Assembly: GCF_006937785.1 (NCBI RefSeq)
Contig: NZ_SJEE01000046.1
Coordinates: forward strand, 1 to 35,760
DNA from: Pseudanabaena sp. UWO311
Lineage (GTDB): Bacteria; Cyanobacteriota; Cyanobacteriia; Pseudanabaenales; Pseudanabaenaceae
Direction: 5' to 3'
DNA: 35,760 nucleotides
Within the stretch, counting starts at the first letter, position 1; every line of letters starts with the position of its first letter. Both the position numbers and the translations under genes were made by a program. This document shows positions 1 to 1,951 of the stretch, in pieces. Below the pieces are notes generated by a model. The model was not told where the DNA came from. It did no database searches and saw nothing but the letters and a program-made list of their open reading frames with translations.

Positions 1-124
1 CTTTATTTTGCCATGCATTTAATATCTTGTGCCGTAAATCAAGCGAATATGCTGACATATTTTGTTTAACTTTAGTGATGCTTTAGATTACTAGACTTGT
101 GGCGTGTTTGATCGGAATTTGCTG

Positions 125-336
125 TAAATTATTGGCGATTGGCATAGAAGGGGCGAGCACGGGGGCATCGCCCCTACGGGTGAAATGATGAAATTTATCC
201 CCATTCCATTCTATTTACCATTTAAATCCAAAAACGGTAGGGGCGATGCCCCCCGTGCTCGCCCCTTTGTCGCAGATCAAAAACCATTGTTTTATGCGGG
301 GACAATTTACCAATGGGTTGATAAAATTGCGATCGC
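125..336. repeat. REP/BIME module A (two inverted REPs) upstream of the RAYT gene
   Basis: This module holds two facing copies of one GC-rich palindrome. The minus-strand copy is at 150-177 and the plus-strand copy at 237-265. Read 5' to 3', each begins GTAG, followed by GGGCGA, a C-rich centre and TCGCCC. A GTAG head followed by an imperfect palindrome is the hallmark of REP elements used by RAYT transposases. The left 53 bases (125-177) recur identically at 1102-1154. The right roughly 100 bases (237-336) recur at 918-1016 with about ten differences. The transposase start codon lies 17 bases after the module. Confidence 0.8.
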
Positions 337-353
337 CTCCAAAAAAATTCGCC

Positions 354-869
354 ATGTCCTACAATCCAGACATACACCATCGCCGTTCCGTTCGTCTCAA
401 AGGATACGACTATTCACAGACAGGCGCATATTTCATCACCATTTGCATTCATCAACGCCAACCCCTATTAGGCGCGATCGCTGATGGCATTATGTACCCA
501 AATCCTGCGGGAACAATGGTACAGACAATTTGGGAAGAACTGCAATTCCATTATCCAAACCTAGAATTAGATGCCTTTGTCCTGATGCCAAACCATATCC
601 ACGGCATTATCGTTCTGAAATCATTACAAACAGAACCAATTATGAAATTAGGAGAAATCATCCATCGATTCAAATCCTTTACAACCGCAAAATATAGACA
701 TGGCGTTCATCAAGAACAATGGCAGCCCTTTATAGGTAGACTATGGCAAAGGAACTATTATGAACACATTATCCGTGATCGCGAATCCTGCGATCACATA
801 CGACAGTACATAACAAATAATCCGTCATCATGGGAATCCGATCTCCTTCACCCAGAAAAAGAAAAATAA
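354..869 (+). CDS. REP-associated tyrosine transposase (RAYT, IS200-like Y1 family)
   Basis: This 171-residue protein belongs to the single-domain HUH/Y1 transposase group that acts on REP palindromes. The HUH motif is visible as NHIHGI (His81, His83). The candidate catalytic tyrosine lies in RNYYEHI (Tyr135/136), and the family-typical FK..T segment is around residues 106-111. I chose the ATG at 354 because the protein then starts with the usual short N-terminus (MSYNPDIHHRRS), whereas the upstream reading frame runs through the REP sequence. No clear Shine-Dalgarno is visible. The gene is bracketed by REP modules on both sides, the arrangement expected for a RAYT with its cognate substrate. 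All motifs are present and no frameshift is seen, so it may be active. RAYTs are usually single-copy domesticated enzymes rather than IS elements; that status here is inference. Confidence 0.9.
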   Translation: MSYNPDIHHRRSVRLKGYDYSQTGAYFITICIHQRQPLLGAIADGIMYPNPAGTMVQTIWEELQFHYPNLELDAFVLMPNHIHGIIVLKSLQTEPIMKLGEIIHRFKSFTTAKYRHGVHQEQWQPFIGRLWQRNYYEHIIRDRESCDHIRQYITNNPSSWESDLLHPEKEK

Positions 870-917
870 GAGTAGCAGCATAGATTTAGTTCAGACACCC
901 ACCCACACCCCAAAATG

Positions 918-1016
918 GTAGGGGCGATGCCCCCGTGCTCGCCCCGTTGTCGCAGATCGCCAACAATTTTTGTATGCGGCGACAATTTCCCAATGGGTTG
1001 ATAAAATTGCGATCGC
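918..1016. repeat. REP half-module B downstream of the RAYT gene
   Basis: This is one plus-strand REP (918-945, GTAG head) with the same 3' flank as module A, ending in the HIP1 octamer. It matches 237-336 with one indel and about nine substitutions. It begins 48 bases after the transposase stop codon, so the transposase is flanked by near-direct copies of this segment. Confidence 0.75.
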
Positions 1017-1109
1017 ACGGTCATAAATTATCGATGAAATGAAAATTGCGATCGCACGGTCATAAATTATCGATGAAATGAAAATTGCGATCGCGCGGCG
1101 ATAAATTAT
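1003..1109. repeat. 39-bp HIP1-containing tandem repeat, about 2.7 copies
   Basis: Two perfect 39-base units lie at 1003-1041 and 1042-1080, and a third partial, diverged unit at 1081-1109. Each unit starts AAAATTGCGATCGC, so each carries a HIP1 octamer. The array joins REP half-module B to module C. The units are contiguous with no unique spacers, so this is not a CRISPR array. Confidence 0.85.
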
Positions 1110-1312
1110 TGGCGATTGGCATAGAAGGGGCGAGCACGGGGGCATCGCCCCTACATGAAAAATGATAAAATTTATTTCCGTTCTATTCCATTCACCATTT
1201 AAAACAAAAATCGTTAGGGGCGAGGCTCCCCGTGCTCGCCCCGTTGTCGCAGATCACAAACAATTTTTGTATAAGGCGAAAATCCCCAAACACGTAAAAA
1301 AAAATATGCGAT
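1102..1312. repeat. REP/BIME module C
   Basis: This is a second complete inverted REP pair, with the minus copy at 1127-1154 and a diverged plus copy at about 1214-1242 (head GTTAG). Its first 53 bases are identical to 125-177, and the spacer is recognisably related to 178-236. The right half is more degraded than in modules A and B. With the tandem array it fills the gap between the transposase and the next gene; I see no gene in 870-1348. Confidence 0.75.
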
Positions 1313-1348
1313 CGCAAAAAATCTATATGATGAAATCTATAAAAAAGT

Positions 1349-1951
1349 CTAGCTCTTAGATTGTTTGTATTTCCAAATGAGCCCTGAAAGTGAATTTGTA
1401 AGTATGTGGGCAATGACTGCCGATAATAGATTACCTGTATACATCGTGACGGCTCCAAGCATCATACCAACAGCGATCGCCCAAACGGTATAGGACAAAT
1501 GCTTAGCACTTGCCATATGTAGCGCCCCAAATACAACACTGGTAATAACCAAAGCAATTCCATTCATACCCAGTGCTGGTAATGCCACACCGCGAAACAA
1601 CATTTCTTCGCTTAGTCCTGGTAATAAACCTAACCAAATTAGATCAACTGGTTCTAATGGTTTCAGTACCATTTCTAGATATTCTTGCGCGGCAATGCGA
1701 TAGCTTTCCCAAACTTCATAAATAAAGCTGCTAAGCAAAGCAACCCCTATGCCTATTCCTGCACCGATCGCTGCATGTTCTGGCTGCCAACGAAGTGGAA
1801 CCATAGGTATGCCCGTTAAGTACACCCAACCTTTAGAGATTCCCAAAAAGATAATTGCAGTCACTGCCATCGCAATTAGTACCTGCGATCGCGATAGTGT
1901 TTGATCTTTTTTATCAGGATTTTGTTGAGGAGCTTGCGAGAATATGGACAT
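1349..1951 (-). CDS. CPBP-family intramembrane glutamic endopeptidase (Abi/CAAX protease 2-like)
   Basis: This is a 200-residue integral membrane protein with several hydrophobic segments. All three conserved CPBP motifs are present: EExxxR at 115-120 (SEEMLFRG), FxxxH at 141-145 (FGALH) and HxxxN at 182-186 (HILTN). These residues form the intramembrane active site in this family, which includes Rce1-type prenyl-protein proteases and bacteriocin-immunity proteins. The physiological substrate cannot be told from sequence. It is transcribed on its own, away from the REP region and in the same direction as the upstream lyase gene. Length is normal for the cyanobacterial members. Confidence 0.85.
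   Translation of the reverse strand: MSIFSQAPQQNPDKKDQTLSRSQVLIAMAVTAIIFLGISKGWVYLTGIPMVPLRWQPEHAAIGAGIGIGVALLSSFIYEVWESYRIAAQEYLEMVLKPLEPVDLIWLGLLPGLSEEMLFRGVALPALGMNGIALVITSVVFGALHMASAKHLSYTVWAIAVGMMLGAVTMYTGNLLSAVIAHILTNSLSGLIWKYKQSKS

What the first reader, a model, noticed from the sequence alone, without database searches (positions are those of the whole stretch)
125..1312. Complete RAYT-REP system with inverted GTAG-headed REPs on both sides
An intact REP-associated tyrosine transposase is flanked by five REP copies organised as inverted pairs, with long near-identical flanks (53 bases identical at 125-177 and 1102-1154). This looks like the source locus of a REP family, and such systems are little studied in cyanobacteria.
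Basis: partly seen in the sequence, partly recalled or inferred. Interest (0 to 1): 0.6.

Follow-up and report, generated by a model that had tools for sequence, protein, structure and literature searches.

The report
Jumping-gene enzyme beside a hypervariable gene
A cyanobacterial transposase-like enzyme and its hairpin repeats turn out not to be scattered through the genome but to sit just after the rapidly mutating end of a putative immune-sensor gene, a pairing that recurs in unrelated cyanobacteria and may link two kinds of mobile DNA.

Summary
In detail: an intact RAYT (TnpA-REP) gene at 354-869, five GTAG-headed REPs, and 53 identical bases at 125-177 and 1102-1154. The "source of a REP family" reading fails: in the own genome all copies with at most one mismatch lie at this locus, which an IS630-like insertion and contig ends appear to split. 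Of 388 sampled genomes of the class, 10 hold the exact REP, all in this genus: 8 of 8 with this RAYT, 2 of 18 without.

The surprise is the neighbour. Upstream of the array is a caspase-nSTAND1-FGE gene ending in a diversity-generating-retroelement (DGR) variable region: differences from a related template hit 55% of adenines, 10% of other bases. RAYTs of this kind lie within 1.2 kb downstream of FGE-type genes, same strand, at 13 of 71 loci examined (rough expectation below 0.1), in four RAYT lineages and four families; 12 of 13 ends are VR-like. In two genomes the REP's GTAG supplies the variable gene's stop codon.

Best reading: a non-proliferating RAYT-REP unit that preferentially lands, or persists, beside DGR targets. 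Whether it helps DGRs is untested; no DGR reverse transcriptase was found in the own genome.

The parts
1..124 (.). End of an IS630-like insertion sequence (the contig starts inside it); a matching inverted end closes contig C16
   Evidence: Its last bases recur at 19 other places, most near contig ends; terminal inverted repeats CAGCAAATWCCGATCAAACMCGCCACAA on C16 and C45. Family name inferred from the TA duplication; no transposase was read.
125..126 (.). TA, target duplication of that insertion
   Evidence: C16 side ends ...GGTCATA, C45 side begins TAAATTATT
125..306 (.). Left copy of the 182-base repeat unit (REP-spacer-REP-tail)
   Evidence: 86% identical to 1102-1283; another copy on C16:78793-79003, 90%
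150..177 (-). REP 1, exact GTAGGGGCGATGCCCCCGTGCTCGCCCC
237..265 (+). REP 2, one extra C; inverted pair with REP 1
354..869 (+). RAYT / TnpA-REP gene, 171 aa, motifs NHIH, WQ, YITNNP
   Evidence: purifying selection, median dN/dS 0.17 over 28 pairs of 8 clade-A genes
918..945 (+). REP 3, exact, singleton with tail
1003..1119 (.). Three tandem 39-base units containing GCGATCGC (HIP1-like)
   Evidence: the name HIP1 is recalled
1102..1283 (.). Right copy of the 182-base repeat unit
1127..1154 (-). REP 4, exact
1213..1242 (+). REP 5, degenerate (3 edits); inverted pair with REP 4
1349..1951 (-). Downstream neighbour: Rce1-like CAAX protease gene, not part of the element

Best explanation
The window holds one part of a larger locus. 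A HUH enzyme present once per genome (RAYT, subclass 2.4 by motif) sits among tandem inverted REP pairs that only it carries; these repeats do not disperse. The locus lies downstream of the variable region (VR) of a DGR target gene (Trypco1 + caspase-nSTAND1-FGE); in this strain an IS and a contig break hide that. Shown: the private REP, its conservation, its hairpin, the VR signature upstream, and the recurrence of VR/FGE-RAYT adjacency in four RAYT lineages. Inferred: the RAYT cuts single-stranded REP at GTAG and moves the REP-RAYT unit; insertion is favoured at VR 3' flanks, which carry hairpins and are probably single-stranded during DGR homing; once there the unit is kept and amplified only locally.
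For: Exact 27-mer: 36 copies in 8 RAYT genomes, all but one (G012:C84) at the RAYT locus, 4 of them by inferred contig joins; exact copies in 10 of 388 class genomes. REP almost invariant among species while flanks diverge. REPs of the 63%-identical RAYTs of family f32 differ by paired changes G9-C23 to A-T and G12-C21 to C-G, keeping the stem. Upstream gene is FGE/nSTAND1/caspase; ten VRs differ from the G022 template at 153 of 280 A but 63 of 650 other positions. FGE-type gene upstream, same strand, within 1.2 kb at 13 of 71 RAYT loci; rough null 0.065 for 53 loci. The label needs 6 changes on the RAYT tree, 5 forced, shuffled mean 14. No RAYT within 3.2 kb downstream (sequence held) of 49 conserved-end FGE genes or of 13 VRs with a DGR RT or Avd downstream. 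GTAG/CTAC repeats lie within 600 bp of 24 of 53 other VRs against 5 of 49 conserved FGE genes (p 1.3e-4; 0.003 without T1 orthologues; 0.016 after further collapsing). In f32 the same array and RAYT also stand at a site without FGE (G196), which suggests movement.
Against: The C16-C45 join is inferred from IS ends, repeats and synteny in relatives, not from a read. Most T1 cases are probably one old insertion inherited vertically; only four RAYT lineages are clearly separate, and one of these (L057) has an unsure place on the tree. 58 of 71 RAYT loci have no FGE gene upstream, including all 7 outside this class. Of the 13, G004's FGE end is not VR-like, G019's is rich in N and its diversification unproven, and in G023/G025 an HNH-type ORF lies between VR and RAYT. 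46 of 53 VRs without a DGR RT have no RAYT in the sequence held. No single-strand exposure, cutting or transposition was measured. Twenty regions with dispersed REPINs of G022 show no VR-type terminator (by eye), so the landing rule is unknown.
Confidence: 0.5

Rival explanations
1. The REP-RAYT unit is a functional partner of the DGR: the REP hairpin acts as the hairpin/cruciform that DGR homing needs just downstream of the VR, and RAYT nicking helps cDNA integration or activates remote targets.
For: BPP-1 homing needs a GC-rich hairpin just downstream of the VR (4-34 bp in phage-type DGRs), stem structure rather than sequence mattering, with the stop codon in it (PMC3240598, passages). In G219/G335 a GTAG REP begins at the VR gene's stop codon. 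Same orientation in 13 of 13.
Against: Own genome, G005, G013, G019 and G020 have the RAYT and no DGR RT at E 1e-20; G022's best match is a 149-aa piece. In T1 the first REP is about 0.2 kb from the VR, behind a terminator-like hairpin. All 13 VRs with an RT nearby and 46 of 53 others lack a RAYT in the sequence held (two of the 46, L102 and L111, end at contig breaks). Loops of phage-type DGR hairpins are GRNA; the REP loop is not.
Confidence: 0.12
2. Retention for a reason unrelated to DGRs: one ancestral insertion after a conflict-system gene, kept because REP hairpins stabilise or terminate its transcript, or merely hitchhiking.
For: The T1 locus is shared by 7 RAYT genomes (2 by inferred joins), with REP remnants in G003 and G019; RAYT under purifying selection; REPs are known to lie mostly downstream of genes (PMC3733652, abstract).
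Against: Adjacency recurs at unrelated target genes and in four RAYT lineages; 49 conserved-end FGE paralogues do not show it.
Confidence: 0.25
3. Classical REPtron that seeds a dispersed REP family.
For: Anatomy matches: RAYT flanked by inverted GTAG REPs. A related REP, GTAGGGGCAATGCCCCCGTGCTTGCCC, has 14 copies in G022.
Against: Exact REP not dispersed in any of the 8 genomes. The related family also occurs where clade-A RAYT is absent (one copy in G009) and could belong to another or lost RAYT.
Confidence: 0.08
4. The unit carries or swaps the 3' end of the FGE gene (VR cassette mobilisation), using the REP array as homology or as excision ends.
For: RAYT and caspase part have different closest relatives: dS G022-G005 0.11 (RAYT) vs 0.21 (caspase part), G022-G011 0.33 vs 0.15; the FGE part is more diverged in protein. 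In G012 the FGE part is missing and the array starts at the break.
Against: Against the T1 genes, the FGE domains of G019:C48 and f32 are 37-41% identical while their RAYTs are 63-71%, so FGE end and RAYT do not travel together over long times.
Confidence: 0.05

Closest known systems
TnpA-REP (RAYT) subclass 2.4 of Quentin et al. 2018 = RAYT group 4 of Bertels et al.
   Same: NHIH, WQ and YIxNNP motifs, long GTAG REP with G-C pairs at the stem base, abundant in cyanobacteria (PMC6006769, passages)
   Different: This REP is confined to the RAYT locus; no GTAG/GTGG-GG hairpin head inside the window's gene, whereas insertions in the gene are typical of 2.4; a place after DGR variable regions is not mentioned in the passages read
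GTAG REPtrons of cyanobacteria (families GTAG-12, -15, -16; PMC3733652, passages)
   Same: GTAG head, inverted dimers, tyrosine transposase nearby
   Different: those families are dispersed; this one is private to one locus
Remote DGR variable proteins of cyanobacteria (PMC7517822, passages)
   Same: FGE/CLec C-terminal VR far from an RT; IS200/IS605-family transposases reported near 9 variable proteins of 6 species (neighbourhoods of 10 kb); possibly some are RAYTs
   Different: its main text does not hold the words RAYT or extragenic; here strand, position and cognate hairpins are defined. Its supplementary tables were not read
MITE-like arrays at DGR loci of Thiohalocapsa PB-PSB1 (PMC10907252, passages)
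   Same: stem-loop repeat arrays beside DGR targets, parts of DGRs lost
   Different: tied there to IS terminal repeats; the main text does not hold the word RAYT
RAYT among RT neighbours (PMC8934634, passages)
   Same: lists RAYT among domains occasionally found near bacterial RT genes
   Different: RT class not named in the passage; nothing on VR, REP or position
DGR target hairpin (BPP-1, PMC3240598, passages)
   Same: GC-rich hairpin just after the VR, stop codon in the hairpin (as in G219/G335)
   Different: GTAG head, different loop, companion HUH nuclease; no homing shown

Membership tests
RAYT / TnpA-REP (subclass 2.4) | Y1 HUH transposase core with NH[IFV]H, WQ, YIxNNP | tested here: met
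   PF01797 36 bits; NHIH, WQ, YITNNP in the translation; motif table of PMC6006769
RAYT / TnpA-REP | Passes NCBIfam equivalog NF047646 cut-off | tested here: not met
   69.8 bits against 80, best match nonetheless
RAYT / TnpA-REP | Gene flanked by GTAG/GTGG hairpin REPs | tested here: met
RAYT / TnpA-REP | Cuts single-stranded REP at GTAG | not testable with these tools
   needs biochemistry
Dispersed REP/REPIN family | Many copies across the genome | tested here: not met
   own genome: 5 of 5 copies with at most one mismatch at one locus (2 on C16 by inferred join); 2-6 exact copies per genome in 8 genomes, 35 of 36 at the RAYT locus
DGR remote target (upstream gene on C16) | VR differs from TR mostly at template adenines | tested here: met
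   15 of 28 A and 11 of 65 other positions for G000 against the G022 template; 153/280 vs 63/650 over 10 VRs
DGR remote target | TR and DGR RT in the same genome | tested here: not met
   G000: no TR by two short patterns, no RT at E 1e-20 with one RT query; G022 has TR and a truncated RT

The most novel reading that the evidence does not exclude
RAYT-REP units are trans-acting target-site modules for diversity-generating retroelements: a GTAG hairpin placed after a variable region, plus a HUH nuclease that opens it, lets a distant or later-lost retroelement reach remote target genes, so that a REP transposase has been recruited to make immune-sensor genes hypermutable.
Probability: 0.12. Interest if true: 0.88.

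Novelty: new variant of a known kind. Interest (0 to 1): 0.6.

Why it matters
What keeps RAYTs that do not disperse REPs, and how DGRs recognise and spread to remote targets, are open questions (the first recalled; the second raised in PMC7517822). A recurrent physical link between a hairpin-type HUH transposase and DGR variable regions would make both testable with one assay. In the five full-text searches of the held library aimed at the link I saw no paper describing RAYT or REP at DGR targets; the two papers that hold both 'RAYT' and the DGR term were checked (one lists RAYT among RT neighbours, the other is an author's name). PMC7517822 comes nearest.

Tried and rejected
Source-locus reading: rejected by copy counts. 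TR inside the window or near the RAYT: none seen with a short VR-core pattern. REP in place of the DGR hairpin as a general rule: not so at T1, where a separate terminator-like hairpin follows the VR. Terminator as the general landing signal: 20 regions with dispersed type-B REPINs of G022 did not show it (read by eye, 90 bases each side). FGE 3' end and RAYT moving as one block: dS values mixed. PDB search found only a weak match to TnpA-REP 4er8 (E 0.18). Plasmid search: three distant hits, none cyanobacterial. Genome-contig scan: 7 distant relatives, none cyanobacterial; near records may be left out. No structure prediction was run.

Counting notes. RAYT loci examined for FGE: 53 (17 genus, 36 outside the genus) and 18 (L053-L056, L058-L071: 3 genus, 8 class, 7 other phyla, some of them fragments; none positive), 71 in all: genus 9 of 20, rest of the class 4 of 44, other phyla 0 of 7. 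alone had left out the 18 but kept L057, which is positive, so 71 is the fair denominator. RAYT hits whose flanks I did not fetch include G009:C40, G011:C54, G020:C2 in the genus and the weaker hits at the end of the list. L281 and L284 have under 600 bp upstream. G000 and G005 (contig breaks) and G012 (FGE part lost) are not among the 13; in the tree I labelled them adjacent, by inference. For L305-L324 only the upstream side was fetched. The null assumes about 150 FGE genes in 26 genomes and 4,700 genes each (the gene number is assumed, and FGE numbers outside the genus were not measured). VR, TR and conserved classes come from regular expressions; duplicate flanks were dropped, and FGE genes whose ends did not match (G023, G004 among them) are not in its table; the FGE list was cut at the end ('more matches are not listed') and four listed places were not fetched. 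Organism names are not given for whole genomes: 'cyanobacterial' rests on a psbE-like ORF beside the G022 locus and GCGATCGC repeats, both judged by eye and recalled.

Full report
Observation. The RAYT gene, the five REPs and the 53-base identity are in the sequence as described. Three REPs are exact 28-mers and two carry edits; four of five form two inverted pairs, and 918-945 is alone. The repeat unit is longer than the REP: 125-306 and 1102-1283 are 86% identical, and a third copy at C16:78793-79003 matches the left one at 90%.

Where the locus really begins. Bases 1-124 are the end of an insertion sequence whose last bases recur at 19 other places in the genome, most near contig ends. Contig C16 ends in a matching inverted end, and both sides carry TA. 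C16 ends with a 39-base unit, one full REP pair and further 39-base units, so C16 and the window are most simply two halves of one array split by an IS630-like insertion. In G022, G011, G020 and G013 the orthologous upstream gene and the RAYT lie on one contig; in G005 the array is again broken by contig ends. The join in the own genome is an inference.

Copy number. Up to 3 mismatches, the own genome has 7 copies: 3 in the window, 2 on C16, 2 with 3 mismatches on C5 and C23. In 26 genus genomes the RAYT at 70% identity or more occurs once in each of 8, and all 8 have the exact 27-mer; of 18 others 2 have one exact copy (G003, G010). Of 388 genomes sampled from the class 11 match with up to one mismatch; 10 of them have exact copies, all in this genus. 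Exact copies number 2-6 per RAYT genome, 36 in all (counts, summed), and lie at the RAYT locus (4 of them by inferred contig joins), apart from G012:C84, which like G010:C8 sits in a short head-to-head pair with a different REP. So this REP is private to its RAYT. By contrast the genus has a truly dispersed GTAG REPIN (GTAGGGGYWNNGCATTHSC; 43 hits in the own genome, 4-47 per genome) whose sequence flanks RAYTs of another clade (B).

REP as hairpin. The 28-mer folds with stem pairs 4-28 to 10-22 and 12-21, 13-20. Across species clade-A copies keep all 27 bases, apart from a few with 1-3 edits in G000, G020 and G019, while the next 50 bases on either side vary. RAYTs of family f32, 63% identical, carry GTAGGGGCAATCCCCCCGTGGTTGCCC: both changed pairs are compensated. 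RAYT clade A is under purifying selection (dN/dS 0.11-0.37, median 0.17, 28 pairs). The motifs NHIH, WQ and YITNNP place it with subclass 2.4.

The neighbour. Of the six clade-A loci on one contig, five (G022, G011, G020, G013, G019) have a gene with an FGE-sulfatase domain upstream; in the sixth, G012, the FGE part is missing and the array begins at the break. In G022, and on C16 in two ORFs, the gene is caspase-nSTAND1-FGE, with a Trypco1 gene before it in G022. In G019 it is another caspase-FGE protein without nSTAND1, and G019's T1 orthologue on C54 keeps a piece of the repeat unit without RAYT. The C-terminal stretch RGGSW...CRSA.R...GFRV varies widely between species, mostly at first and second codon positions. 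G022 has a template (GGSWNNNAQNCRSAYRNNNNARNQNNNIGFR) with an RT fragment 0.3 kb away. Ten VRs (7 RAYT- or REP-linked T1 genes, the T1 gene of G015 and two further G022 genes; G019's T1 was left out for its length) differ from it at 153 of 280 A, 25 of 210 C, 19 of 230 G and 19 of 210 T. This is the DGR signature. The own VR on C16 differs at 15 of 28 A and 11 of 65 others.

Recurrence. FGE-type genes lie upstream on the same strand, within 1.2 kb, at 9 of 20 genus RAYT loci, 4 of 44 others of the class and 0 of 7 from other phyla (see counting notes). Positive outside the genus are G219 and G335 (f32), G344 (f31) and G039 (f6). No FGE was seen on the other strand or side in the sequence held. 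Ends are VR-like in 12 of 13; diversification is directly supported for T1 and, by the pattern of change, for G219 vs G335: VR 72 of 93 identical with 10, 6 and 4 differences at codon positions 1, 2 and 3, FGE body 452 of 498, RAYT 510 of 519. There the GTAG of a REP begins at the VR gene's own stop codon. G196 of the same genus carries the same array and RAYT at a site without FGE in 1.5 kb, which suggests that the unit moves. On the RAYT tree the adjacency label needs 6 changes, 5 forced by well supported branches, against a mean of 14 in shuffles (includes three inferred labels, and L057 sits on a long branch).

Controls. I fetched 120 regions around FGE genes of the genus. None of 49 conserved-end FGE genes and none of 13 VRs with a DGR RT or Avd downstream has a RAYT within 3.2 kb in the sequence held; 7 of 53 other VRs have. 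GTAG or CTAC repeats within 600 bp: 24 of 53, 2 of 13 and 5 of 49 for other VRs, RT-linked VRs and conserved FGE genes. The first against the last gives p 1.3e-4, 0.003 without the nine T1 orthologues and 0.016 after collapsing one duplicated gene family; relatedness remains uncorrected.

What speaks against a working partnership with a DGR. With one RT as query at E 1e-20, 12 of 31 genomes matched; of the 8 clade-A genomes only G011 and G012 have a full-length match, G022 a 149-aa piece, the own genome none; of the four clade-B genomes with FGE upstream three have one (G004, G023, G025; not G009). Distant DGR RTs could be missed, in f31, f32 and f6 above all. The own variable gene may therefore be frozen.

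Mechanism. Shown: private, conserved, hairpin-forming REP; VR upstream; recurrence. From knowledge of the family: a RAYT of E. coli binds single-stranded REP and cuts GTAG (stated in PMC3733652, passage). Inferred: landing or retention at VR 3' flanks because these form hairpins (shown for BPP-1, PMC3240598, passages) and become single-stranded during homing; local amplification of REP pairs by slippage or recombination gives the tandem arrays of about 273 bases per unit in G022, G011 and G020.

Prior art. PMC7517822 reported IS200/IS605-family transposases near 9 variable proteins of 6 cyanobacteria and proposed dispersal (passages); its main text lacks the word RAYT. PMC10907252 described MITE-like arrays at DGR loci (passages). 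PMC8934634 lists RAYT among occasional neighbours of bacterial RT genes without naming the RT class. Supplementary tables were not read.

Noticed in passing
G000:C16:78815-78842 vs window 150-177: The REP on C16 has its 11-base centre inverted while the outer flanks keep their orientation, as if the hairpin tip had been flipped.
   Followed up: no
L267 about 974-1690 (reverse complement), L044: In G023 and G025 an HNH-type ORF lies between the variable gene and the RAYT (family judged by eye).
   Followed up: no
L153, G022:C1:1609784-1610212: G022 has a DGR template and two VRs within 3 kb but only a 149-aa RT remnant: a DGR that seems to be dying.
   Followed up: partly
L038, G012:C76:24890: The stop codon of the G012 RAYT itself is supplied by the GTAG of a REP.
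   Followed up: no
L160, L200, L217, L237, L240, L254, L257, L261: Remote VRs without RAYT often carry a dispersed type-B REPIN starting 108-166 bp after the VR; where both GTAG ends are intact they are 175-176 bp apart.
   Followed up: partly
G000:C47:100650-101111 (L119): A second RAYT of the own genome, flanked by type-B REPINs, is the likely cognate of the dispersed family.
   Followed up: partly
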